A stretch of 64,000 nt of DNA. Source: Psococerastis gibbosa. Lineage: Eukaryota; Arthropoda; Insecta; Psocodea; Psocidae. Below, piece after piece: positions 5,784 to 64,000 of this stretch. The stretch lies in the NCBI GenBank assembly GCA_963971405.1, contig OZ020484.1, positions 13,144,001-13,208,000 on the forward strand, read 5' to 3'. Position numbers and translations under genes: made by a program. Each line of letters starts with the position of its first letter. Positions within the stretch are counted from its first letter, which is position 1. Under the pieces are notes generated by a model. The model was not told the DNA's origin, ran no database searches, and saw only the letters and a list, made by a program, of their open reading frames with translations.

Positions 5784-5787
5784 TATA

Positions 5788-5984
5788 GTCCACGCAAAAT
5801 GAGAAAAGTATGGACATGGAATGTTATGATCCTGTGCAACACTGTAAAAATATTCTTTGCACAATTTTTGTTATGCCTTGCATCCAATGCAACAAGGTAA
5901 CACAAAATTGTGCAAGAAATATTTGTACAGTGTTGCACAGGATCAAAACATTCCATGTCCATACTTTTCTCATTTTGCGTGGAC
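5788..5984. mobile_element. Fold-back MITE, near-perfect 197-bp hairpin
   Basis: Two arms of about 90 bp are inverted copies of each other at roughly 94 percent identity by eye, separated by a loop of about 17 bp. The ends are GTCCACGCAAAATGAG and its complement, flanked on both sides by TATA (5784-5787 and 5985-5988). The TA-rich duplication suggests a Tc1/mariner-type MITE. A transcript across it would form a long hairpin. Confidence 0.8.
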
Positions 5985-6085
5985 TATACCACTATGCTAT
6001 AGAAGTCCGTATATAAAACAGGTTTTCAAATATTGCCTATTGTAGCATATACTTGTATTGGAGACCCCCACAGACATGTAATTAC

Positions 6086-6379
6086 AAAGACTTTCACGGC
6101 AGGAGTTACATGATGAAACATTATAATCCAGACTGATAGGCCATGGCCAATCTGAAAGAGTACTTCCAAACGTTTCATTAACATTTGTGGTCCACATCTT
6201 CAGTGGCACTGAGTTGCCATGGAGCCTCCAGGCTACAATATTAGAAGTCTACGCAATACCACTGAAGGTTTGGCCCACATATATTGGCGAAACGTTTGGA
6301 AGTACGCTTTCAGATCGACCACTGCCTGTCTGCCCGGATTCTATTGCTTCATCATGTAACTCTGGCCGTGAATGTCTTT
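6086..6379. mobile_element. Fold-back element with about 120-bp arms
   Basis: The left arm (6086 to about 6205) and right arm (about 6262-6379) are inverted copies; for example, TACTTCCAAACGTTTC on the left matches the complement of GAAACGTTTGGAAGTACG on the right. Divergence is greater than in the neighbouring hairpin at 5788-5984. No TSD is clear. It is likely a non-autonomous DNA element. Confidence 0.7.
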
Positions 6380-7149: not shown

Positions 7150-7274
7150 TAGTAAATAAAGTAAAATATCTTTGCCAAGTATTACTAAAATATATTAAAT
7201 ATTAAATACCGGTATAAATTTTTTAAAAATGTATTCTAGTAATAGTCGGCAAAGATATTTTATTTTATTTATTA
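7150..7274. mobile_element. Small inverted-repeat element
   Basis: Arms of about 45 bp, around 'aaaatatctttgcc' on the left and its complement 'ggcaaagatatttt' on the right, surround an AT-rich core. No coding capacity. It is a probable MITE or fold-back. Confidence 0.5.
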
Positions 7275-8416: not shown

Positions 8417-8584
8417 GTCGACACAAGTTAAAGAAAATGTCACCCTGAATTGGGACTTGGTTTTTCAGTACTGTATAATAGCAAATATGCATATGTAAAT
8501 ATACAGTATATGTATATTAATGTTATACAGTACTGCACAACTAACACCCAATTCAGAGTGAAACTCTCTTTAACTTGTGTCGAC
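8417..8584. mobile_element. Inverted-repeat MITE, 168 bp
   Basis: The ends GTCGACACAAGTTAAAGA and the complement form TIRs of about 63 bp with a core of about 45 bp built on 'tatgtaaatatacagtatat'. A related 'ctaaattgggacttagtta' stretch at 36160-36180 hints at another degraded copy. Confidence 0.65.
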
Positions 8585-26253: not shown

Positions 26254-27806
26254 CTGCAGCCTGGTCATGGCGATTATAATACCGGGGTTAATTAAATACC
26301 ATGTCACGTGATGGGATTAATTCAATTGTTTGTAAGGCGCCCATTCCACATACGTACAACGTCAATGAAAATTATGAAATTGAAGGACATTTCAATTTCT
26401 CATTGATGGGGGCCATTCCAAATGTTTTTCAAAAATTGACAATTTTCAATTGAAGCGTATGCGCCAAATTTTTGAAATTTGTTTCTTGAAATTGTATTTG
26501 TTTTCTTCATCGCCTTATTATTTAATCCTTATTATAATTCTTATACAGAAATGCTGTCTTTTTAGAGAAATCAATTTAAATAGTTGTACTTGTCATATCA
26601 CATGACGCCATTTTTTAATTTTAGATTGTTTGTTTCATTGTTTGTGATTTTACTCTATTAGGCGCCCATTCCACATACGTACAACGTCAATGAAAATTAT
26701 GAAATTGAAGGATATTTCAATTTCTCATTGATGGGGCATTCCATATGTTTTTCAAAAATTGACAATTTTCAATTGAAGCGCATGCGCCAAATTTTTGAAA
26801 TTTGTTTCTTGAAATTGTATTTGTTTTCTTCATCGCCTTATTATTTAATCCTTATTATAATTCTTATACAGAAATGCTGTCTTTTTAGAGAAATCAATTT
26901 AAATAGTTGTACTTGTCATATCACATGACGCCATTTTTTAATTTTAGATTGTTTGTTTCATTGTTTGTGATTTTACTCTATTAGGCGCCCATTCCACATA
27001 CGTACAACGTCAATGAAAATTATGAAATTGAAGGACATTTCAATTTCTCATTGATGGGGACCATTCCATATGTTTTTCAAAAATTGACAATTTTCAATTG
27101 AAGCGTATGCGCCAAATTTTTGAAATTTGTTTCTTGAAATTGTATTTGTTTTCTTCGTCGCCTTATTATTTAATCCTTATTATAATTTTTATACAGAAAT
27201 GCTTTCTTTTTAGAGAAATCAATTAAAATAGTTATACTTGTCATATCACATGACGCCATTTTTTAATTTTAGATTGTTTGTTTCATTGTTTGTGATTTTA
27301 CTCTATTATCAATTGATCATTGATCAATTTTAACAATGGCATAGAGTAAAATTGAAATGCCCTTCCATTTCATAATTTTCATTGACGTTGTACGTATGTG
27401 GAATGGGCACCTAATAAATGAAAAGCAAATTGCTGAATTTTTAAATTGTAATGTTGGAAATGCTAAACAACTGAACTGACGTGACGCTGCCGTAGCAAAT
27501 ATAAATAACACATCGCCCTAGAAATAAACAAGTTTTAATATTTTGAATTAATATATTAAGGATTATAAATAATTTGTCTAAATCTAAAGCAGAAAAAACG
27601 AAGAAACCCACTAAAAATATAGCTGAAGATAATTCAATTGTTTACATTTGAATTTTCCGCGCTTAGCACTGCGACGATTACCAACATCAAAAATTAAAAA
27701 AATCTGAAATTTGCTTGTCTTTTATTTTAAACAATTGAATGAACCCCATCGCGTGACATGTTATTAAATGAATCCCGGGATTATAATCGCCATGATCAGG
27801 CTGCAG
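26254..27806. mobile_element. TIR element containing a nested MITE
   Basis: Outer TIRs of about 78 bp: CTGCAGCCTGGTCATGGCG at the left and CGCCATGATCAGGCTGCAG at the right. Related ends bound 46455-46854. The interior holds the whole Harbinger-type element 26336-27411, so this element was there first. There is no transposase ORF. Superfamily unknown. Confidence 0.75.
26336..27411. mobile_element. Harbinger-type MITE with internal triplication
   Basis: Ends GGCGCCCATTCCACATACG and CGTATGTGGAATGGGCACC, flanked by TAA on both sides (26333-26335, 27412-27414). The left TIR plus body is repeated three times, starting at 26336, 26661 and 26984 (spacing 325 and 323 bp), before a single right TIR. 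The copies are almost identical, with only scattered substitutions, so the amplification is recent relative to the element. Confidence 0.85.
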
Positions 27807-33662: not shown

Positions 33663-33869
33663 AACTTAAGGTCATGGGCTTGTCAGGATGTAGCTAGCTA
33701 CGAACACAACGAGGACTTTGATATTCTACAATGCAGGAAAATCGTGAGCAATCTCATCCGCACTGGCTGCACCATAGTACTACAATGGATCCCTGGACAT
33801 GCTGAAGTCCATGGAAATGAGAAAGCGGATAGACTCGCCAGAGAGGGAGCTGGTACGGTACAACCATAA
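33663..33869 (+). pseudogene. LINE RNase H fragment
   Basis: Sixty-eight codons open from 33663 encode the end of a type I RNase H domain: 'VLQWIPGHAEVHGNEKADRL' is the classical WIPGH..V.GNE.AD motif, including the last catalytic Asp. The stop is at 33867. The remainder of the domain and the RT are absent. In the intact element this part would precede the fragment at 33335-33625, but it is inverted relative to it. Confidence 0.8.
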
Positions 33870-42566: not shown

Positions 42567-42613
42567 ACCTCGACTTAGACTATTGGTAAAGGTTAATGGC
42601 AATGGTGTAATAC

Positions 42614-42795
42614 TATTTAACAAAGGGTTAGTTGGACTTACATTGCCTACTGTATTAATAGTCATTAGAGGCATTGGCGTCATAGTCACCCTTCCCCTGA
42701 CAATGGGCTACGTCCTAATTGTTCGATTACAATAATGTCTCTCATGACTATTAGCACAGCAGGCAAAGTAAGTCCAACTTACCCTTTGTTAAATA
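42614..42795. mobile_element. Inverted-repeat element, 182 bp
   Basis: Left 'tatttaacaaagggttagtt' and right 'aacttaccctttgttaaata' arms of about 50 bp surround an unrelated core. Probable MITE; superfamily unknown. Confidence 0.65.
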
Positions 42796-43126
42796 GGCTG
42801 AGACTATGTGTTATGTGAGATATGTTATTAATGCGTGCACGTTTAGTTTAATAGTAGCGTGTTCAATTTATTTTAATTTTTAAATTTGTATAATATTGTT
42901 AAATGTGTTCCTAGGGCGACTACAAAATTATTGTGTATTAATTTAATTGTTTACTGTTTCGATACACGTTTACTTACTTTATTACTTGCTTATTAGTTTT
43001 GTACATGAAATACTTTAGAAGGGAAAACTATTCTTTTCTTAAGAGGGCATGCTATGAAAGAAATTAGCACCCACCCCAAAATTTGTTATTTTTATCGACT
43101 TTTTTTTTAAATTAATTAACAAAGGA

Positions 43127-55024: not shown

Positions 55025-55802
55025 TTTACCTTAAAAGAAGTAATTTATTACAAGTGTAACAACAACATAACAGGTTGTTGAGGAGATGACATGCAAGTTC
55101 ATGTCCTGCCCCGCCTACAAGCTAGTAGCGCCATCACGTGTGAAGTCAAATTATAGCTGGACAAGGTACTGTATGCCATACATCAATTACATCGAGGCGT
55201 ACTACATAATGGATCTGATCCGATTTGTGTTCCTCGTATAGTAGCCTGGATCTGGATTTTTGACGTGACAACGTCTAATATCGATGAGCGCTCGTTGGAA
55301 CACTGGGTGCATGCACGGAAAAGGGTGACGCCGATGCGTGACACTCATCCGTTACGCTGATTACAACAATTTTTTTTTTTTTTACGTTGTCACGTTAAAC
55401 TATCGTCCGTAAACCGACTTTATAGACACCCAATTTTTTTTCTCTGGGTGGGAGAGCGGTTTTCATGCAACGATAAGAGATACGAGGATACTGCAGGTAG
55501 CATTGTAAATTGTAAATTGTCTTAGTATAACGAAAAACGCCGTGGCACGCCAACACATTGCAGGTCAAGGCGTTACCCAGAATACAGCTGAGAGAGGACC
55601 ATCTTTCTTGACAACTGCAGTCAACAACAGTTCCGGCAGCCGTGTTTTTCCCATACGGTATCCATCGGCCATCGGCATCGCTTGTGGAAACCCAGTGCTC
55701 CTTGTTGGAATCTTTGACTTCCAGCAACTTATCAACGTGAAAAATTTTAACACGGTTTCAACGTGTACATCATCGTCCAAGTGCCGCAGCAAAAAAGTAA
55801 GT
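55025..55802. other. No gene supported, flank of the Polinton
   Basis: Overlapping ORFs on both strands (55395-55898) look protein-like in places ('STSDADGRWIPYGKNTAAG' on the minus strand) but match no family I know. This is probably pre-existing host repeat DNA. Confidence 0.4.
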
Positions 55803-55816
55803 AGTATAGAAAGGGG

Positions 55817-56030
55817 GTTTCTGGCGCTTACCCCACCCCCCGTCGAGCTACCCCATCTACCCCACCCCCCGTCATGCTACCCCTCGTGGGTGGTCTGAGT
55901 TTCTGGCGCTTACCCCACCCCCCGTCGAGCTACCCCATCTACCCCACCCCCCGTCATGCTACCCCTCGTGGGTGGTCTGAGGTTCTAGCGCTTATCCCCC
56001 CCCCGTCGAGACCCGTGGGTGGTCTTTCTA
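55817..56030. repeat. C-rich tandem repeat, 82-bp unit
   Basis: Units begin at 55817 and 55899 and are identical or nearly so; a third, truncated unit begins at 55981. Each ends in 'cgtgggtggtctga', a phrase repeated again at 56188 and 56247. It is likely part of the terminal region of the Polinton. Confidence 0.85.
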
Positions 56031-56089
56031 TGGCACTATGATTGTTTTATTTTTATTTTTATAATTACTAATTTGTGAGATACAGAGTT

Positions 56090-56094
56090 TTTTT

Positions 56095-56137
<43 letters not shown>
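56090..56137. repeat. T-tract of about 45 bp
   Basis: One T-rich run, broken once near 56096. It sits between the 82-bp repeats and the first ORF. Confidence 0.8.
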
Positions 56138-56140
<3 letters not shown>

Positions 56141-56423
56141 GTGTTAATTGAATTAAAACATTTCTTTCTTCTTCTTCTTTCTTCTTCGTGGGTGGTCTTT
56201 GTACCCCGCCGTGCTTATCCCGTTGTCTATCTATCTCTGTACCAGGTGGGTGGTCTATGACGCACCCCCCCCCCCCTCCCCGTAGTACAGCGTACATCTA
56301 GAATGTTCCAAATGTGTCGTTACAAAAGGCATCGCCTTGGGTTGAGGAGCTTAGTTGAAGCCAAACCTTCATTCAAGACTCAAGTAATACCACTTTATAA
56401 GTAAAATTGTATAATCTTACAAC

Positions 56424-56729
56424 ATGACATCTCTATTCAATAAAGTTAATGCCATCAACCAAGTAGCCGGGCCTACCATATCAATGCGAAAACTAGTGAT
56501 TGGAGTTAAATACCTAATATTGAAAATAGTGCAAATCGAAAAAACAGAATATGGACCAGCTGTAAAAGTCATATTGCGAGGATTGGAAAAAGAAGTCGTG
56601 GAATGTTTTGTGCCTCAACAATATCTGCCAGCCTTTCAACAAAGTGAAGTTACTCCAGGAGCTGAGATGTATCTTATCGTTTCAAGCCATCGGGGAAAAA
56701 ATAGTGTCAACCTACAGATCATAGAATGA
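56424..56729 (+). CDS. Small OB-fold-like protein, candidate ssDNA-binding
   Basis: A 101-residue acidic-to-neutral protein, probably cytosolic or nuclear; no signal peptide or membrane segment. The pattern 'INQVAGPTISMRKLVIGVKY' followed by a strand, then 'EYGPAVKVILRG' and 'CFVPQQYLPAF', looks like a small five-stranded barrel of OB type: strand, tight turn with YG, strand, then a F-[VL]-P surface motif. Similar small proteins are common among invertebrate mobile elements and have been thought to bind single-stranded DNA, which would fit a protein-primed replication cycle; this is inference, and no DNA-contact residue can be named. ATG at 56424 is the first in frame. The 188-bp repeats separate it from the next ORF. 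Confidence 0.6.
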   Translation: MTSLFNKVNAINQVAGPTISMRKLVIGVKYLILKIVQIEKTEYGPAVKVILRGLEKEVVECFVPQQYLPAFQQSEVTPGAEMYLIVSSHRGKNSVNLQIIE

Positions 56730-56999
56730 ATATTTCATGATGTATTATTATTGTAAACTACAGAAATAATGTAAATATATGAATAATTTCTATATATATT
56801 TTGTTCTTGTTTTATTAATTTCATAACTAGTTTTAAGCTTACAGTTAGATGATGATGAGTATTAAAAACTAATGTTTGAAAGAAACAAGCTATTGCTTCA
56901 GTCATAATCGAGTACTTGAACGGTGAAGGGTTATCATAATCATAGACTATGAAATGATGTAAATCAAATAATTAAACGAGTACATTAGCTAATTTTAAT

Positions 57000-57610
57000 A
57001 AATCTATCCGAAGCATAGGTTTATGGGAAGTATTGATTTGGTAAATAGTTAACCGTGTGCAGGTTCAAACCTGTTGTGAATCACCAGGTGCATATAACTC
57101 TGTACAGCCGTCTAATGGTTCAGACAAACAACACATTAATAAATCTACCCCTCGCGGACAGTCCATTGTAAGCTAATGTGATTTTTGTTTTCGTAAATCT
57201 ATCCAACACTTATATTGAAGGGAAGTATTGATTTGGTAAACAGAGTGCAGGTTCAAACCTGTTGTGAATCACCAGGTGCATATAACTCTGTACAGCCGTC
57301 TAATGGTTCAAACAAACAAGCCATTAATAAATCTACCCCTCGCTGACAGTCCATTGTAAGCTAAAGTGATTTTTGTTTTCGTAGATCTATCCAACACTTA
57401 GGTTGAAGGGAAGTATTGATTTGGTAAACAGAGTGCAGGTTCAAACCTGTTGTGAATCACCAGGTGCATATAACTCAGTACACCCATCACACCAGGTGGT
57501 CCATTGTAAGCTAAGTGATTTTACAAATGGTGCTTACCCCCCCCCCCCCCCTCCGCACCGTACAAACACCTTCCCCTCGCCGACAGTCCATTGTAAGCTA
57601 AAGTGATTTT
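57000..57610. repeat. 188-bp tandem repeat, three units
   Basis: 'gcaggttcaaacctgttgtg' occurs at 57059, 57247 and 57435, exactly 188 bp apart. Each unit also has 'gaatcaccaggtgcatataa', 'cccctcg-gacagtccattg' and 'gtaagctaa-gtgattttt'. The third unit is altered by a C-run near 57538-57552. It lies upstream of the 57645 ORF, so the array is a possible promoter, origin or packaging element. Confidence 0.85.
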
Positions 57611-57644
57611 TGTTTTTGCATCAGTTGCAATCGGTCGTTAGAAA

Positions 57645-58346
57645 ATGAAGGGTGTCTTTACCACATATTATCCGCTTCGTGATGGACAAAGTGTTATTGT
57701 TGGATTACAATTCAAAACATCAGAATTCGAAGTATACGTCGTAGTTGTTGATAAAGATCAGGAAATTGCATTCAATATGATTGAATGGGAGTTCTGGTGT
57801 GCAACATTACCATTATTTCGATTATATCTCCGTAAGAAAACAGTGTGCTACAACGGAAATATACTATGGACACCTAATTTCATCAAATCAAACCTGACGA
57901 TGATGTTAACGAATGATAATGAATTGGAAATGAAGTCTCCATCATCACACATTAAGCTATCTAGAGTAAATATTGAGAACATACAAGCATTGAAAGCTAT
58001 TCTTCATATTGTATGCTGTGAGTTGGAGGAGAAGAAGATGCAGGCTAACTTCCACTTAAAAAATATCTTGAAAGACGTATACATGGACTTGGAAACAGAT
58101 GACGTTTCAATGGAAGCTTTTTTACAGTTTGTGCAATCACCAACTCCAATAGTAGCAACTATCGAGGATGTTCGTTGTAAACTAGTGTCGAAGAAGTATC
58201 GAAATCAATCAAATCGTATATATTTAGAAATTATAACCATCTATGAAAATGAATTGTGCTCTGTGATACTTAAGCACTGGTTGGAGCGACCTCAAGTCAG
58301 TATGAACCAGACTGTTGAACATGATGAAACCGCTGGGAATAGTTGA
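57645..58346 (+). CDS. Polinton orphan protein, unknown function
   Basis: A 233-residue protein I do not recognise. Residues 1-60 form alternating hydrophobic strands ('GQSVIVGLQFKTSEFEVYVV') that end at a tryptophan-rich stretch (IEWEFW); residues 115-135 form a likely amphipathic helix with paired cysteines (VCC). No signal peptide or transmembrane helix. ATG at 57645 directly follows the 188-bp repeats. It ends by overlapping the next ORF by 32 bp in another frame, which suggests a single compact transcription unit. A weak resemblance of residues 10-50 to PC4/p15-type DNA-binding folds is only an impression. Base composition and codon use fit the neighbours. Confidence 0.7.
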   Translation: MKGVFTTYYPLRDGQSVIVGLQFKTSEFEVYVVVVDKDQEIAFNMIEWEFWCATLPLFRLYLRKKTVCYNGNILWTPNFIKSNLTMMLTNDNELEMKSPSSHIKLSRVNIENIQALKAILHIVCCELEEKKMQANFHLKNILKDVYMDLETDDVSMEAFLQFVQSPTPIVATIEDVRCKLVSKKYRNQSNRIYLEIITIYENELCSVILKHWLERPQVSMNQTVEHDETAGNS

Positions 58347-58818
58347 GTTTCAAGGTTTCAAAGATAATGGAAACAATTTCATCATCAAAGAATTGGCTAT
58401 GGGCCCTGCATACGATGACCAGTATGAGCATTGGTTTTTCCGTCCACCCTTTCCATTCGCCAATCTTACAGCTCAAGTAAAAAGCAGCAACACATGGAGC
58501 ACAAATAATCTCCATAAACTTCGTTGGGAAGAGGGGAACGTGAACTACATTTGGCTAAAGAACATTTTACTTGAGTTTGCTAATCAGTATACTAGAATTG
58601 CTACTAAAGGAGGAGAGAAGCAAGTATGGCTTGCAGGAATACTAGAACGTGTTGTATATGACTTGGACTCTGTGGTTCTGGCAAGTTTTCAGAAGTTACC
58701 ACCTGTAGAAGCTAAACAATGCATTCACACGGGAAACTGCGCGTTGATAAATTTGAAGAAACTACAGAAATGGTTTCAAGATGTCTATTGTTTCATTGAT
58801 CATGATGAGGTTGATTAA
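58315..58818 (+). CDS. Orphan protein of DEDD-exonuclease-like pattern
   Basis: A 167-residue protein. The start ('GIVEFQGFKDNGNNFIIKEL') resembles the first strand of RNase H-like exonucleases, where an acidic D-x-E is usual; here E replaces the Asp. The centre carries 'WFFRPPFPFANL', then a 'YDLDSVVL' acidic motif at about residues 115-122, and the end has 'CIHTGNCALINLKKLQKW', where H-x-x-x-C-A-L resembles the last His motif of DEDDh enzymes. This pattern is known from many paralogous, uncharacterised proteins in invertebrate genomes. Whether it keeps activity cannot be told, as a catalytic acid seems replaced. It overlaps the upstream ORF and ends 13 bp short of the convergent integrase stop, with a poly(A) signal AATAAA at 58819-58824. 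Confidence 0.6.
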   Translation: MNMMKPLGIVEFQGFKDNGNNFIIKELAMGPAYDDQYEHWFFRPPFPFANLTAQVKSSNTWSTNNLHKLRWEEGNVNYIWLKNILLEFANQYTRIATKGGEKQVWLAGILERVVYDLDSVVLASFQKLPPVEAKQCIHTGNCALINLKKLQKWFQDVYCFIDHDEVD

Positions 58819-58852
58819 AATAAAGTTATATTTATAAAATATCAGTTTTATT
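58819..58852. terminator. Convergent poly(A) signals
   Basis: AATAAA on the plus strand at 58819-58824, immediately after the stop of the 58315 ORF. On the minus strand AATAAA lies at 58852-58847, inside the last codons of the integrase. The 3' ends of the two transcripts therefore overlap. Confidence 0.7.
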
Positions 58853-59746
58853 AATCCATGTAGGTTTCGGGAAACCAAGCCATTTCACATATAATTTATC
58901 CTTTGACTTTTTCAAAACTTTCTCCACCAAATATACATCTGGATGCTTGGTTTTCTGCAACTCTTCCATATACCATGAGCCCAAGATGGGTTCGCCATCC
59001 ATAGCCTCAAGGAGATAGGTGGTAGGTCGAGTAGGTTGTACTAGACGCACGCGAAATACTTCTGTAGACCAGTTCGGTTGGTAACCCTTCTCAAATAAGG
59101 CTTTTTGCTTGCTGATTCTGACAGGATCACCCTCTTGAAATTTCTGTTTGATAGTACCTTTCACATCAACAGCATTATACATGGATAATAATTTTGCTTC
59201 ATGTTCTTCTCGCACATCAGCAGGACACATGTTAATTGTCCTATGCTTGGTAGTGTTATATTGTTGCACTAGACGAGGTAGTAAATGCAACCACTTATAA
59301 TTTCCCTGCAAGCTGAATTCCTTCCACATTCGATTTTTCAGAGTGCGATTCCAGCGTTCAATAATTGAAGCTTTCAGTGTAGAATACGTAGCATAATGAT
59401 TAATGCTATATTGTTTTAGAAGACTTTTCATTCGCATGTTGAAAAATTCTAGTCCCATATCTGACTGGAGGTGAGCAGGAGCTTGTGGAGCTCTATTGAG
59501 AATTTTTATGAAAGCTTCAGTAACATTTTTCATAGATTTAGTTTTTACTGCTTCTGCATAACCGAATTTTGTGAATGCATTTATCACTGTTAGAATATAT
59601 TTATATCCTTTATTAATCCTTGAATATGGAATCATTTCCACTAGATCTGCTTGCCATAAATCATGCATTCCTTTAAGAGTCACATGACGTCGAGGATAAT
59701 TCCGTCGAGCAGGCCGATGAATTTCATCAACCAAAGCATGCTTCAT
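58832..59746 (-). CDS. Retroviral-type DDE integrase with chromodomain
   Basis: A 304-residue integrase. It would cut and join the element's ends into host DNA in the nucleus. The RNase H-fold catalytic core is at about 28-170: first Asp D34 in 'WQADLVEMIPY', second Asp D96 in 'LQSDMGLEF', Glu E130 in 'ASIIERWNRTLKNRMW'; D96 and E130 are 34 apart, close to the usual D35E. 'QYNTTKHRTINMCPADV' (about 177-193) is the conserved region after the core. A chromodomain-like module occupies 271-304 (VEKVLKK, then YVKWLGF, then the W of PTWI), as in many Polinton and Ty3 integrases. The N-terminal zinc-binding HHCC domain is absent from this ORF. Its ATG (59746) overlaps the upstream stop in an ATGA. 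Confidence 0.95.
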   Translation of the reverse strand: MKHALVDEIHRPARRNYPRRHVTLKGMHDLWQADLVEMIPYSRINKGYKYILTVINAFTKFGYAEAVKTKSMKNVTEAFIKILNRAPQAPAHLQSDMGLEFFNMRMKSLLKQYSINHYATYSTLKASIIERWNRTLKNRMWKEFSLQGNYKWLHLLPRLVQQYNTTKHRTINMCPADVREEHEAKLLSMYNAVDVKGTIKQKFQEGDPVRISKQKALFEKGYQPNWSTEVFRVRLVQPTRPTTYLLEAMDGEPILGSWYMEELQKTKHPDVYLVEKVLKKSKDKLYVKWLGFPKPTWINKTDIL

Positions 59747-60441
59747 TGAATAATATTTGCTTCTCGCAATTCGCTTATAATATCAATGATTTCGTTTTGA
59801 TGACTTGTATGTCCTGCAGCATGTGATGCATTAAGTAAGCGTAATCGTTCTACCAGTTCATTTGGATCGTTCCAATACCGGTATTCACCACCAGATTTTA
59901 TCCCAAATAGCTGTTTAATAATCTTTTGATATTTATAACGTTGACTGCCCCTCAGACGACCACTAGTGGTTAAATGAGCTCCAGTTCTTTCCAGCATATC
60001 TTTATAAGCTTGTAAATCTTCCGGAGTATAGTTTTCAGGCTTGTTCAAGGTTAATAATTCATATAAGCCCAATGTACCTTGCCATGTTTTATCTTCGATT
60101 GTGATTGAATCATCTTCATCATTGAAATGTACAGGGTATGAACCCAGCCTAAATATACCTTCATTACTTCGTGTTAGTCCATAGTATGTATCAATGGTTT
60201 TCCTATTATAATGATCAGGTATAAATAAGTCTAAATATTTGCTAACTCCGGGTTTATTTATTGTTTTTTCTGGTGCTGTCTGTTTGTTCAACTCAATTAA
60301 TTCTTGTAGTGGTTTCGAGACCGGTTTTAACTTTCGCTCTTGCTGAGCAGCCTCATTGTGTAGATCACGTTTAAGATTAAGGTACTTTTGCTGCAGAGCT
60401 TTGCGTATGTTGACAATATTCTTGATAACTTTAGTATCCAT
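59743..60441 (-). CDS. DUF8207-type Polinton protein
   Basis: A 232-residue protein of a family linked to Polinton/Maverick elements; function unknown. The N-terminal 75 residues are basic and helical (heptad-like 'QQKYLNLKRDLHNEAAQQE'), with predicted coiled coil. The conserved centre has 'YYGLTRSNEGIFRLGSYPVH', then 'DKTWQGTLGLYELLTL', and 'TTSGRLRGSQRYKYQKI'; the C-terminus has a His cluster 'NASHAAGHTSHQNEIIDI'. It lies between the ATPase and the integrase on the same strand, 47 bp after the ATPase stop, and overlaps the integrase by 4 bp. One possibility is that its C-terminal His cluster stands in for the missing zinc-binding end of the integrase; this is inference. Confidence 0.85.
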   Translation of the reverse strand: MDTKVIKNIVNIRKALQQKYLNLKRDLHNEAAQQERKLKPVSKPLQELIELNKQTAPEKTINKPGVSKYLDLFIPDHYNRKTIDTYYGLTRSNEGIFRLGSYPVHFNDEDDSITIEDKTWQGTLGLYELLTLNKPENYTPEDLQAYKDMLERTGAHLTTSGRLRGSQRYKYQKIIKQLFGIKSGGEYRYWNDPNELVERLRLLNASHAAGHTSHQNEIIDIISELREANIIQ

Positions 60442-60488
60442 ATCTACCTCACCGAGTCACAGTTGAATGAATAATGATGAGTTGAGTG

Positions 60489-61184
60489 TTAAGCAGAGTT
60501 ATTTATATCTTTGAAGTAGTGATCGAATCCCTGCCGATATCGTCCATCGTTTAATCCAAAATCTTTTGCAATAACTAGGAATGCATGTGACTCTTTCCAT
60601 GCTTCGGCGCAGAGTTTCATGAATGTCGCTAAATCCATATCCCCCGCAACATGGTCTCTATACACATTCTTTATATTAAGTAAATCCTGTTTGAATAGCA
60701 CGATAAAATTCAAATTGTCTCGCAACAAATGTTTTGGAATAGAGGTATAGGTCTGAGTGAGATAGAAGCAATCAATCCCTTTATGACGACCCATACAGTA
60801 GACATTTCGAATTTCCGTTTGTGATTCACATGAAACATCGTCGAATATTAGCACAGAGTTAGGTTTGATGTCAGAGAGTGGTGTAACCGAATCGCTTGAC
60901 CCCGTAAAAGTCATCCCACGAATAGAATTTACATTTGTCTCAAGCTGCTGGTATTTATGTTGAAACAATGTTTTGCAGAATAAGTATACATTTTCAAATC
61001 GTAGCCCAAACGGATGATATACCATACTGCATAGTAGGCTTGTTTTACCACAACCTGATGGGCCGCAGATTGCACCACGAATCGATCCGGGGAGTAAAGG
61101 TCCATGCTTTCTATTATTCCGTACATCTTCATCTTCTTGACTTAGAATCACACTGAACTTGTGTCTCTGTGGTACGAGCTTCAT
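60489..61184 (-). CDS. A32/FtsK-HerA-like DNA packaging ATPase
   Basis: A 231-residue P-loop ATPase of the FtsK-HerA type (poxvirus A32-like), expected to pump genome DNA into the capsid. Walker A is GPSGCGKT at residues 41-48, Walker B is VLIFDD at 111-116. A sensor-like 'YLTQTYTSIPKHLLRDN' follows, as in this family. I chose the ATG at 61184 ('MKLVPQRHKF') over an in-frame one at 61238, because the latter would add hydrophobic residues from the divergent spacer and cross the TATA-like box. The length is normal for Polinton ATPases. It is divergent from the PLA2-like gene and upstream of the DUF8207 gene. Confidence 0.93.
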   Translation of the reverse strand: MKLVPQRHKFSVILSQEDEDVRNNRKHGPLLPGSIRGAICGPSGCGKTSLLCSMVYHPFGLRFENVYLFCKTLFQHKYQQLETNVNSIRGMTFTGSSDSVTPLSDIKPNSVLIFDDVSCESQTEIRNVYCMGRHKGIDCFYLTQTYTSIPKHLLRDNLNFIVLFKQDLLNIKNVYRDHVAGDMDLATFMKLCAEAWKESHAFLVIAKDFGLNDGRYRQGFDHYFKDINNSA

Positions 61185-61250
61185 TATATGACTGATAAAA
61201 AAGTTATAAATACCACTGTATATATGTATTTTACTCATTCACATTTGAGA
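61185..61250. promoter_or_regulatory. Divergent promoter region, 66 bp
   Basis: Between the divergent ATPase and PLA2-like starts. TATAAATA at 61205-61212 lies 39-46 bp upstream of the plus-strand ATG at 61251. On the minus strand, TATATA-rich sequence (61220-61227) may serve the ATPase. Only two short gene starts share this spacer, so it is a plausible bidirectional promoter. Confidence 0.5.
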
Positions 61251-61976
61251 ATGTCTATGGTGAACAGCATAATTAATAAGTTACCATTTGAAGCACATAT
61301 CCCCGGCTATCAATTCTGCGGACCAGGCACCAAGTTAGAAAAACGATTAATTCGAGGAGATCGAGGGAGAAACAAACTTGATCAAGCTTGCCGTGAACAC
61401 GATATAGCTTATTCGCAGTCATCAGATATAACTAATCGACACGTAGCGGATATAAAATTAGCAGATCAAGCGTGGCAACGTGTTAAGGCAAAAGATTCAT
61501 CTATAGGGGAAAAAATTGTCGCTTTAGGTGTGACAGCTGCAATGAAAGTTAAACGAAAGCTGGGATTTGGGCTGAAGCGGAAAGTATCCTTCAGATCACT
61601 ATTGACTTCAGCGAAGAAAGCGATAAAGCTTGCAAAACCACCCACTGTGGCGGATACAATCAAGATTGCTTATAAATCTGTGAAGAAATCAAAGGGAAAT
61701 AAGGTGAAACTTCCCCGAATCATACCTATTGCCAAGACAGGTGGTATATTACCACTTATCCCGATATTTGCGGGGCTTTCTGCACTAGGCGCTCTCTCTG
61801 GCGGTGCTGCAGGAATTACATCAGCTGTTAATAAAGTCCATAGTGCACAGAAAAAGTATGAAGAAATGAAACGTCATAATCAAACTATGGAATCTATAGC
61901 TATTGGGAAAGGCTTGTATTTAGCGCCACATAAGAAAGGGAGTGGACTCTACTTGCATCCTTATTCAAAAAACTAA
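61251..61976 (+). CDS. PLA2-domain virion protein with hydrophobic segment
   Basis: A 241-residue protein (start at 61251 'MSMVNSIINKLPF', with M3 as an alternative at 61257; the in-frame ATG at 61161 would overlap the divergent ATPase). Residues 18-55 hold a viral phospholipase A2 motif: Ca-binding loop 'YQFCGPG' at 20-26 and catalytic H50-D51 in 'CREHDIAYS'. This motif is shared with parvovirus VP1 and acts in endosomal escape. A basic stretch (99-156) follows, then a 30-residue hydrophobic Gly/Ala-rich segment (164-193). The tail repeats 'GxGLYL-P' twice. The layout resembles a fused PLA2 and adenovirus pX/pVI-like membrane-active protein. An adenain-type site LSGG-A occurs at 182-186. It is 5 bp upstream of the protease gene. 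Confidence 0.88.
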   Translation: MSMVNSIINKLPFEAHIPGYQFCGPGTKLEKRLIRGDRGRNKLDQACREHDIAYSQSSDITNRHVADIKLADQAWQRVKAKDSSIGEKIVALGVTAAMKVKRKLGFGLKRKVSFRSLLTSAKKAIKLAKPPTVADTIKIAYKSVKKSKGNKVKLPRIIPIAKTGGILPLIPIFAGLSALGALSGGAAGITSAVNKVHSAQKKYEEMKRHNQTMESIAIGKGLYLAPHKKGSGLYLHPYSKN

Positions 61977-61981
61977 GTTGC

Positions 61982-62362
61982 ATGCCTCGGAACCGTCCAA
62001 TGACTAATGTGGAACTTACAAAATTCACCGCTAACGTTCCTCATTTTCGTGGTGTGTTCATGCGAAATGCATTGCCTCGCATACCATGGAAACATAATGA
62101 AGCTGGAATAATTAATTTAGATGATGCTATAGGACCTGGTACACATTGGGTTGCTTACCGCAAGATTAGAAACCGAGTTATATACTTCGATAGCTTCGGG
62201 GACTTACAACCACCATTGGAATTGAAACAATATTTCCACAACTGTACAATATACTACAACCATCAATCGTATCAAACCTATTCAACATCAAATTGTGGGC
62301 AGTTATGTTTAAAATTTCTCTACATGAAAGATCCATTTTCCATACTATTAAAAGTTATATAA
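61982..62362 (+). CDS. Adenain-like cysteine protease
   Basis: A 126-residue Ulp1/adenain-fold cysteine protease that would mature virion proteins. The catalytic order His, Asp, Cys is visible: H55 in 'GTHWVAYRK', D70 in 'YFDSFGDLQPP', C105 in 'TSNCGQLCLKFLY', with the Cys-Gly pair and nearby Trp56 typical of adenain. At 126 residues it is short for the adenain family, though it keeps all motifs. The start at 61982 is 5 bp after the previous stop, without a separate promoter, so they probably share a transcript. Intact, no frameshift. Confidence 0.93.
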   Translation: MPRNRPMTNVELTKFTANVPHFRGVFMRNALPRIPWKHNEAGIINLDDAIGPGTHWVAYRKIRNRVIYFDSFGDLQPPLELKQYFHNCTIYYNHQSYQTYSTSNCGQLCLKFLYMKDPFSILLKVI

Positions 62363-62390
62363 GTTATGAATATGTTTGATTTATTGCATT

Positions 62391-63086
62391 ATGTCGCTAG
62401 CATTGACATTGAGCGGTAACGACTCATTGCTAAGTAGCAACTACTTCCCACCGATTGTACTTGAGGGTGCATGGGAAATCGGCTTGCTTGACCTCGAAAC
62501 ATACAATTCAATTCCTAATCTCTCAAATGGTGTCGTTAAAATTGTAAACAATTCAATTCCTCCGAAGACTAGAATAATTGAAATACCAACTGGATCCTAC
62601 GAATTGTTAGATGTAGTCAAGTATATTAATCAAGTGTGGGGTTCTGAAATCATACGGATACGCGCAAATCGGAACACCCTACATTCGGAAGTTATGATAA
62701 TACATGAAGACTTTGAAATTGAAGTAAATGAAGAACTAGGATACCTGCTAGGCTTTGGTTATGATGTGATGACATTTTTCCCTGGGGAAAGATATGAATC
62801 ACCACATAGCATTAAAATATCCAAAGTCAATGCAATTCGAATTAATTGTAATATTACAAGTGGATCATATTTGAATGGTAGACCATCACATGCCGTTCAT
62901 GAATTTTATCCTAATGTACCACCTGGCTATCGGATTGTTGAAGCACCAAATACAATCATCTACCATGCTATAAATACGAATGTACTTACAAGTCTAACGT
63001 TAGACATTGTCGATCAAGACAACGAGACGGTTAATTTCCGAGGAGAAACTATTACTTTACGTCTTCATTTACGTAAACGACAATGA
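62391..63086 (+). CDS. Penton-type minor capsid protein
   Basis: A 231-residue single-jelly-roll-type minor capsid protein, expected at the fivefold vertices. The start 'MSLALTLSGNDSLLSSNYFP' and then 'WEIGLLDLETYNSIPN' is the conserved N-terminus of Polinton minor capsids; strands follow throughout and a conserved 'FYPNVPPGYRIVEAPNTIIY' block occurs near 179-198. I took the ATG at 62391 over the one at 62376, since five more residues (MIYCI) add nothing like the family. The gene lies 28 bp after the protease and overlaps the next small ORF by 4 bp. Confidence 0.9.
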   Translation: MSLALTLSGNDSLLSSNYFPPIVLEGAWEIGLLDLETYNSIPNLSNGVVKIVNNSIPPKTRIIEIPTGSYELLDVVKYINQVWGSEIIRIRANRNTLHSEVMIIHEDFEIEVNEELGYLLGFGYDVMTFFPGERYESPHSIKISKVNAIRINCNITSGSYLNGRPSHAVHEFYPNVPPGYRIVEAPNTIIYHAINTNVLTSLTLDIVDQDNETVNFRGETITLRLHLRKRQ

Positions 63087-63256
63087 GAGTATATATTGCA
63101 CAGCGGTATGCACCATACATCATTCCACATCGGACTTCCACGCAAGCACGTTATATTCGGCTCACTAACGAGAACAAGCAATATTTACAATCAATAGGTT
63201 TTAAAATCCACGATGACATCAATACTAAACGTGAAGGAGTCCATTCTCGTGGATGA
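63083..63256 (+). CDS. 57-residue small ORF between penton and major capsid
   Basis: Starts with the ATG of an ATGA overlap with the penton stop and ends 44 bp inside the major capsid gene in another frame. The protein is basic (MRVYIAQRYAPYIIPH to begin, '-SIGFKIHDDINTKREG' near the end) with no membrane segment. I cannot name a family. Its position, tight overlaps on both sides and sensible codons suggest a real gene, perhaps a small virion component. It is equally possible that it is a leader or a chance ORF. Confidence 0.5.
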   Translation: MRVYIAQRYAPYIIPHRTSTQARYIRLTNENKQYLQSIGFKIHDDINTKREGVHSRG

Positions 63257-64000
63257 GAGTTTAACGCGTTATGAATACCATAAGATTGCACCCTATTCAT
63301 CAAGTAGTCTAAATAATAATGATGAAATTCGCATACCAATCCATCAACAAGATATACTTACTCTACCATGTGAAAGCCGACTGTATATTGAAGGGGTGCT
63401 AGAAAAAGGTGTGACAACAATTGCTTATGAAGATGAAGACGGGCTTAGCGCTAATGCTATGGCACACTTATTCTCTGAAATACGCTATGAACTCAATGGG
63501 ATAACTGTTGATCATGTGCGAAACCCTGGTATTGCTACTCAGCTTAAAGGGTTAGTATCATTCACCGCTCAAGATGCACAACGTCTTACAAACAGCTCAT
63601 TTTATACCGATGCCAATAAAACAGAGAGGAACTTTAATTTTTGCGTGCCATTGAAAATGCTGTTTGGATTTTGCGAGGATTTTCGACGAGTTCTACTCAA
63701 CGTTAAACAAGAACTTGTGTTAGTGCGATCACGCAGCAATCTGAATGCCATGCGGGATCTTTCAAACACTAAAGACTTAACATTGAAACTAACTACTGTG
63801 CTGTGGGAAATACCTTTCGTAAGTGTGAGTGATAGCCAACGTCTTGAATTGCTGAGTGTACTAAGGGAAAACGTGCGGTTGCCTATTGGCTTTCGAACAT
63901 GGCAACTGTATGAATATCCAAACATTCCCTCATCAACATCATCAATTAATTGGCCTGTGCGCATGATTTCTTCAAGTGAAAAACCACGGTTTGCTATTAT
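63213..64000 (+). CDS. Double-jelly-roll major capsid protein, partial
   Basis: Opens at ATG 63213 and runs uninterrupted to the window edge, 262 residues of what would be a much longer protein. The sequence has the strand-rich features of Polinton/adintovirus hexons: 'EIRIPIHQQDILTLPCESRL' early, 'FSEIRYELNGITVDHVRN' (the conserved R-x-E-x-N-G block), 'ANKTERNFNFCVPLKMLFGF', and 'LKLTTVLWEIPFVSVS'. These match the first jelly roll. It is the fifth gene of the plus-strand virion block. The 3' part, including the second jelly roll, lies outside the window. Confidence 0.9.
   Translation, partial: MTSILNVKESILVDESLTRYEYHKIAPYSSSSLNNNDEIRIPIHQQDILTLPCESRLYIEGVLEKGVTTIAYEDEDGLSANAMAHLFSEIRYELNGITVDHVRNPGIATQLKGLVSFTAQDAQRLTNSSFYTDANKTERNFNFCVPLKMLFGFCEDFRRVLLNVKQELVLVRSRSNLNAMRDLSNTKDLTLKLTTVLWEIPFVSVSDSQRLELLSVLRENVRLPIGFRTWQLYEYPNIPSSTSSINWPVRMISSSEKPRFAI

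What the first reader, a model, noticed from the sequence alone, without database searches (positions are those of the whole stretch)
55803..64000. Intact Maverick/Polinton (adintovirus-like) integrated virus, virion module complete up to the edge
All visible ORFs are unbroken: integrase, packaging ATPase, adenain-like protease, PLA2-like virion protein, penton and the first 262 residues of the major capsid protein. Left of it, every transposon coding stretch is broken, so this insertion is either recent or under selection. The sequence shows the ORFs; their family roles come from established knowledge.
Basis: partly seen in the sequence, partly recalled or inferred. Interest (0 to 1): 0.75.

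Follow-up and report, generated by a model that had tools for sequence, protein, structure and literature searches.

The report
Left half of a Maverick/Polinton
This is the left part of an integrated virus-like transposon of the well-known Maverick/Polinton kind, with every visible gene unbroken but cut off by the window edge before the genes that would show whether it is complete; it is a good specimen of a known thing rather than a new one.

Summary
From 55800 to the edge lies the left part of a Maverick/Polinton: an (AGT)2-type end, DDE integrase, A32-type ATPase, parvovirus-type PLA2 protein, small adenain-like protease, penton candidate and the first 262 codons of a double-jelly-roll capsid protein, all uninterrupted. 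The ATPase keeps 54 of 55 near-invariant residues of 120 relatives.

The finding does not list four further ORFs: an ORF2-like gene between integrase and ATPase, and three ORFs (101, 233, 165 aa) between the left end and the integrase. These three have coding-like codon use; searches for two of them found no relatives.

Not reached: polymerase B, right terminal repeat, target-site duplication, rest of the capsid gene, copy number, host. The genome search did not complete (16 tries). "Intact" thus holds only for the visible 8.2 kb. The contrast with broken transposons is weak: 30 kb of flank holds one recognisable scrap.

Gene content matches published Spodoptera Mavericks, with the ATPase-ORF2-integrase block turned round. 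New member of a known kind; low interest.

The parts
55800..55805 (+). (AGT)2 terminal motif, proposed left end of the element
   Evidence: AGTAGTATAG is unique in the window, AGTAGT alone occurs 18 times on the + strand; (AGT)2 is the commonest end motif of vertebrate Mavericks (PMC8097293)
55817..56010 (.). C-rich 82-bp tandem repeat, 2.4 copies, in the presumed terminal repeat
   Evidence: extent of the terminal inverted repeat unknown because the right end is not in the window
56424..56729 (+). 101-aa ORF, function unknown
   Evidence: codon score 0.130, best in own frame; no homologue among 1 candidate; no Pfam match above cut-off
56993..57616 (.). array of 188-bp and related repeats sharing the TACCCCTCG motif with the end repeats
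57645..58346 (+). 233-aa ORF, function unknown
58321..58818 (+). 165-aa ORF, function unknown
   Evidence: codon score 0.054; no homologue among 16 candidates; no PDB relative; model pLDDT 47, unusable
58832..59746 (-). integrase, 304 aa, rve core with D-61-D-33-E; chromodomain-like tail 58856-58936
   Evidence: rve 1.4e-10; triad spacing; PFV integrase E 1e-4; tail weakly like Rhino/HP1 chromodomains E 0.26-0.76, no Pfam Chromo hit
59743..60441 (-). 232-aa ORF in the place of ORF2 of Spodoptera Mavericks; its stop overlaps the integrase start (ATGA)
   Evidence: no Pfam match above cut-off
60489..61238 (-). A32-type genome-packaging ATPase, 249 aa, Walker A 61041-61064, Walker B 60837-60851
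   Evidence: Pox_A32 4.3e-09; 1434 relatives; 54 of 55 near-invariant residues kept; motifs
61188..61976 (+). PLA2-domain protein, 262 aa; calcium-loop 61308-61328, HD pair 61398-61412
   Evidence: Phospholip_A2_4 5.7e-14; parvovirus capsid VP1 E 2.8e-4; motifs
61982..62362 (+). adenain-like cysteine protease, 126 aa
   Evidence: Peptidase_C5 0.0047, below cut-off; H, D, Q, C in expected motifs (motif meaning recalled); no PDB match better than 0.1
62391..63086 (+). penton (minor capsid) candidate, 231 aa
   Evidence: position directly upstream of the capsid gene, a published place for Polinton PX (PMC4028283); no Pfam or relevant PDB match; model pLDDT 33, unusable
63213..64000 (+). major capsid protein, first 262 codons, open at the window edge
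   Evidence: DJR-like_dom 1.2e-49, profile positions 3-187 of 316

Best explanation
The left part of an integrated Maverick/Polinton of the PLA2-bearing kind described from insects, most likely continuing beyond the edge with the rest of the capsid gene, polymerase B and a right terminal repeat. Working mechanism, inferred from the family: the integrase binds the terminal repeats and inserts a linear DNA copy, perhaps guided by its chromodomain-like tail; a protein-primed polymerase B copies the element from its ends; capsid and penton proteins, matured by the protease, form a particle that the ATPase fills with DNA; the PLA2 protein breaches a membrane on entry, as in parvoviruses. Shown here: gene content, open frames, catalytic motifs, gene order. 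Inferred: every functional step and the presence of the remainder. That it is Maverick DNA I hold at about 0.97; the figure below is for the whole statement.
For: rve, Pox_A32, Phospholip_A2_4 and DJR-like domains in one 6-kb stretch; ORFs far beyond chance; ten of ten ORFs score best in their own frame; 6135 of 6356 bases coding from 57645 to the edge; ATPase keeps 27 of 27 invariant and 54 of 55 95%-conserved residues of 120 relatives and falls in a 20-row group (itself and 19 relatives) with 100/100 support; same gene neighbourhood as Spodoptera Mavericks; (AGT)2 end.
Against: Polymerase B, right repeat and target-site duplication not seen. Protease below Pfam cut-off and penton without any match. 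Chromodomain only weakly supported. Host not identified, so 'insect-type' rests on gene content. Most vertebrate Maverick copies (96%) are defective (PMC8097293, passage).
Confidence: 0.62

Rival explanations
1. A truncated or partly decayed Maverick: the visible left part is open, but the right part is missing or broken, so the element is a recent fossil that cannot move by itself.
For: 96% of vertebrate Maverick copies are defective (PMC8097293, passage); the right half is unseen.
Against: Ten open ORFs with no break in 8.2 kb; conserved ATPase residues kept.
Confidence: 0.3
2. A different preplasmiviricot element: a virophage or a polinton-like virus (PLV) integrated in a eukaryotic genome.
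For: Those groups share a DJR capsid, penton, packaging ATPase and protease.
Against: Retrovirus-type integrase, PLA2 gene and gene order fit Mavericks; PLVs mostly lack this integrase and polymerase B (PMC11071308, passages).
Confidence: 0.03
3. A Maverick whose genes are kept open because the host uses them (domestication).
For: Open frames in a stretch whose flank has hardly any recognisable coding DNA.
Against: All visible virus genes are open, not one or two, and motifs of movement (integrase triad) are kept too; recent insertion explains this more simply.
Confidence: 0.03

Closest known systems
Sf Maverick 1 and 2 of Spodoptera frugiperda cells (PMC5803895, passages seen)
   Same: ATPase (228 aa), ORF2 (305 aa), integrase with chromodomain (310 aa), PLA2-bearing CAP (258 aa) and protease (133 aa) as neighbours in this order; here 249, 232, 304, 262 and 126 aa.
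   Different: In Sf Mavericks the eight small ORFs run in tandem; here ATPase-ORF2-integrase run against the PLA2-protease-penton-capsid block. That paper reports no PY-type capsid homologue; here the DJR capsid is clear. Sequences not compared directly. Polymerase B unseen here.
Vertebrate Mavericks (PMC8097293, section 7 and passages seen)
   Same: (AGT)2 end motif; core genes; accessory ORFs near the ends.
   Different: There ATPase goes with polymerase B and integrase with the capsid genes; here integrase and ATPase share one block. PLA2 not among the core genes listed there.
Drosophila-associated adintoviruses 1-3 (PMC8363768, passages seen)
   Same: 13-15 kb elements; adintovirus 1 has polymerase B, integrase, capsid, protease and FtsK-type ATPase among twelve proteins.
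   Different: Placed there by polymerase B, which cannot be seen here; sequences not compared.

Membership tests
Maverick/Polinton | Retrovirus-type (RVE) integrase | tested here: met
   rve 1.4e-10, D-61-D-33-E, PFV integrase 1e-4
Maverick/Polinton | A32/FtsK-type packaging ATPase | tested here: met
   Pox_A32 4.3e-09, 1434 relatives
Maverick/Polinton | Adenain-like cysteine protease | tested here: inconclusive
   Peptidase_C5 0.0047, 17.1 bits against a cut-off of 21.3; motifs present; no PDB match better than 0.1
[quoted passage not shown]
   DJR-like_dom 1.2e-49 over the visible 262 codons; the rest of the gene is outside the window
Maverick/Polinton | Penton (PX) next to the capsid gene | tested here: inconclusive
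   ORF in the right place; no sequence match; model too poor
Maverick/Polinton | Protein-primed DNA polymerase B | not testable with these tools
   no such gene among the visible ORFs; expected right of 64000; genome search did not complete (16 calls)
Maverick/Polinton | Terminal inverted repeats with (AGT)2-type ends | tested here: inconclusive
   left AGTAGT at 55800; right end not in the window
Maverick/Polinton | 6-bp target-site duplication | not testable with these tools
   needs the right junction
Adintovirus (Adintoviridae as proposed) | Polymerase B grouping with adintoviruses | not testable with these tools
   polymerase B is not in the window; the defining paper was not held

The most novel reading that the evidence does not exclude
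A complete, recently active Maverick lineage with its own architecture: the ATPase-ORF2-integrase block inverted relative to the Spodoptera Mavericks, and a left accessory arm of three orphan genes under a repeat array that reuses a motif of the terminal repeat.
Probability: 0.25. Interest if true: 0.4.

Novelty: new member of a known kind. Interest (0 to 1): 0.22.

Why it matters
Mavericks link transposons with DNA viruses, and most copies studied in vertebrates are broken; an unbroken copy helps to ask whether they still form particles and which accessory genes belong to them. This one adds three unassigned genes and a strand arrangement that differs from the Spodoptera elements. It does not change what is known about the group.

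Tried and rejected
Related DNA: the capsid piece, the integrase and a 22-row ATPase alignment found no related locus in viral contigs, nor did the ATPase alignment in prokaryote genome contigs.

Orphan ORFs: no homologue for the 165-aa ORF among 16 candidates or the 101-aa ORF among 1 candidate; that search needs shared 5-residue words, so it is weak for fast-changing proteins. Single-sequence models of the penton candidate (mean pLDDT 33) and the 165-aa ORF (47) were too poor, and no fold search was made. That the 165-aa ORF is an exonuclease and the 101-aa ORF an OB-fold protein were impressions from memory without any supporting result, and are set aside.

Host: no tRNA, no Rfam match at gathering score, no Pfam host gene in 25.8-55.8 kb; 1-25.8 kb was not scanned with Pfam. 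PHROGs gave generic transposase matches for the integrase and weak matches elsewhere.

Full report
What is there. The last 8.2 kb of the window is the left part of a Maverick/Polinton. Ten ORFs are assigned to it. From left: three rightward ORFs of 101 aa (56424-56729), 233 aa (57645-58346) and 165 aa (58321-58818); a leftward block of ATPase (60489-61238), a 232-aa ORF (59743-60441) and integrase (58832-59746); a rightward block of PLA2 (61188-61976), protease (61982-62362), penton candidate (62391-63086) and capsid (63213 to the edge). An antisense ORF of 120 aa inside the capsid gene (63602-63964) is taken as chance. Pfam supports integrase, ATPase, PLA2 and capsid above its cut-offs; the protease falls short of its cut-off, and the penton and the four other ORFs have no match above cut-off.

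More than chance. The visible element has 7 closed ATG ORFs of 165 aa or more, against 3 in 200 dinucleotide shuffles taken together; the 55.8 kb to the left has none above 153 aa. Codon scores are highest in the proper frame for 10 of 10 ORFs. The three left-arm ORFs score 0.130, 0.055 and 0.054, within the range of the seven other element ORFs (-0.051 to 0.148); of 27 ORFs of 70 aa or more in the first 55 kb, 2 reach 0.054. The two groups overlap, so this supports coding without proving it for each ORF. Coding sequence fills 6135 of 6356 bases from 57645 to the edge, and 6441 of 8201 over the whole stretch.

Is it unbroken in substance? The integrase has a D-61-D-33-E triad; the ATPase has both Walker motifs, the PLA2 its calcium loop and HD pair, and the protease H, D, Q and C in the expected motifs (motif meanings recalled). 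In the PDB the integrase matches retroviral integrases (best E 1e-4) and the PLA2 part matches parvovirus capsid VP1 (2.8e-4). The protease, capsid piece, penton candidate and 165-aa ORF have no convincing match there. The ATPase has 1434 relatives at E<=1e-3 among 1514 candidates; 120 were listed, the best eight at 68-74% identity. Against those 120 the window keeps 27 of 27 invariant residues, 54 of 55 that are 95% conserved and 65 of 67 that are 90% conserved. By the 95% measure it ranks 45th of 121 counted from the lowest. It lies in a group of 20 rows (itself and 19 relatives) with 100/100 support; its exact place inside is not firmly resolved. The rows bear almost no organism names, so this says nothing certain about the host.

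Left end. AGTAGTATAG starts at 55800 and is unique in the window. (AGT)2 is the commonest terminal motif of vertebrate Mavericks (PMC8097293, section 7 read). The hexamer alone is common, 18 times on the + strand of the window, so the boundary rests on its coming directly before the C-rich 82-bp repeats at 55817-56010, and it stays unproven without the right end. All five GTGGGTGGTC motifs of the window lie at 55886-56255. Of the four TACCCCTCG motifs, two lie in the 82-bp repeats and two in the repeat array at 56993-57616. The array may be a promoter or sub-terminal repeat of the element; that is inference.

Transcription plan (inference from order). The left rightward genes and the leftward integrase block converge at 58819-58847, where AATAAA occurs on both strands. 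The ATPase and PLA2 ORFs overlap head to head at 61188-61238. In the alignment, 15 of 21 relatives start at the methionine that is residue 19 of the window's ATPase, so the real start is probably there and the genes probably do not overlap. The 232-aa ORF ends in the ATGA that starts the integrase.

Comparison. The Spodoptera Mavericks have ATPase, ORF2, integrase with chromodomain, PLA2 'CAP' and protease in this order (PMC5803895, passages). Here the same neighbourhood appears with the first three turned round. In this window the chromodomain rests on its look and on weak matches of the last 53 residues to Rhino/HP1 chains (E 0.26-0.76); the whole integrase gave no such match in the PDB or Pfam. 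The penton rests on its place beside the capsid gene (PMC4028283, first of four parts read). Vertebrate Mavericks group ATPase with polymerase B and integrase with capsid genes, and most have accessory regions flanking the core, which is where the three orphan ORFs would fit. The adintovirus label was assigned through polymerase B in the paper seen (PMC8363768, passages) and cannot be tested.

The flank. Six-frame Pfam scans with stops as X of 25.8-55.8 kb gave one RNase H scrap at about 33738-33851, below its cut-off. The same method on the element's + strand found capsid and PLA2 but not the protease or penton, so it misses weak matches; the - strand of the element was not used as a control. 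The flank is rich in interspersed repeats and imperfect palindromes, as eukaryotic repeat DNA is.

What stays open. Polymerase B, the right end, the target-site duplication, the rest of the capsid gene, copy number and host were not reached.

Literature. Four searches were made. They were not aimed at whether this very element or its orphan ORFs have been published, so no claim is made on that. PMC11071308, PMC8363768, PMC4061559, PMC5803895 and PMC3671162 were seen as passages; PMC8097293 as passages and section 7; PMC4028283 as part 1 of 4.

Noticed in passing
window 59743-59746: The stop of the 232-aa ORF overlaps the start of the integrase (ATGA), suggesting coupled translation or a frameshift product. 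An HAAGH motif lies near the end of the first ORF (59809-59823), as if part of a zinc-binding integrase domain; no partner cysteine pair was seen by eye at the start of the integrase ORF.
   Followed up: partly
window 26335-27308: Three tandem copies of a 323-bp unit, 97% alike, with diverged relatives at about 23.5-23.9 kb and 27.3-27.8 kb.
   Followed up: no
window 5784-5988, 6086-6379, 7150-7274, 8417-8584, 42613-42796: Imperfect palindromes that match their own reverse complement over about 125-300 bp, like foldback or MITE-type elements.
   Followed up: no
window 33738-33851 (+): RNase H scrap, 38 residues, E 0.00034, below the Pfam cut-off; probably an old retrotransposon remnant.
   Followed up: no
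protein P0067: A relative of this ATPase is filed in public data as a Staphylococcus aureus protein; most likely eukaryotic DNA contaminating a bacterial assembly.
   Followed up: no
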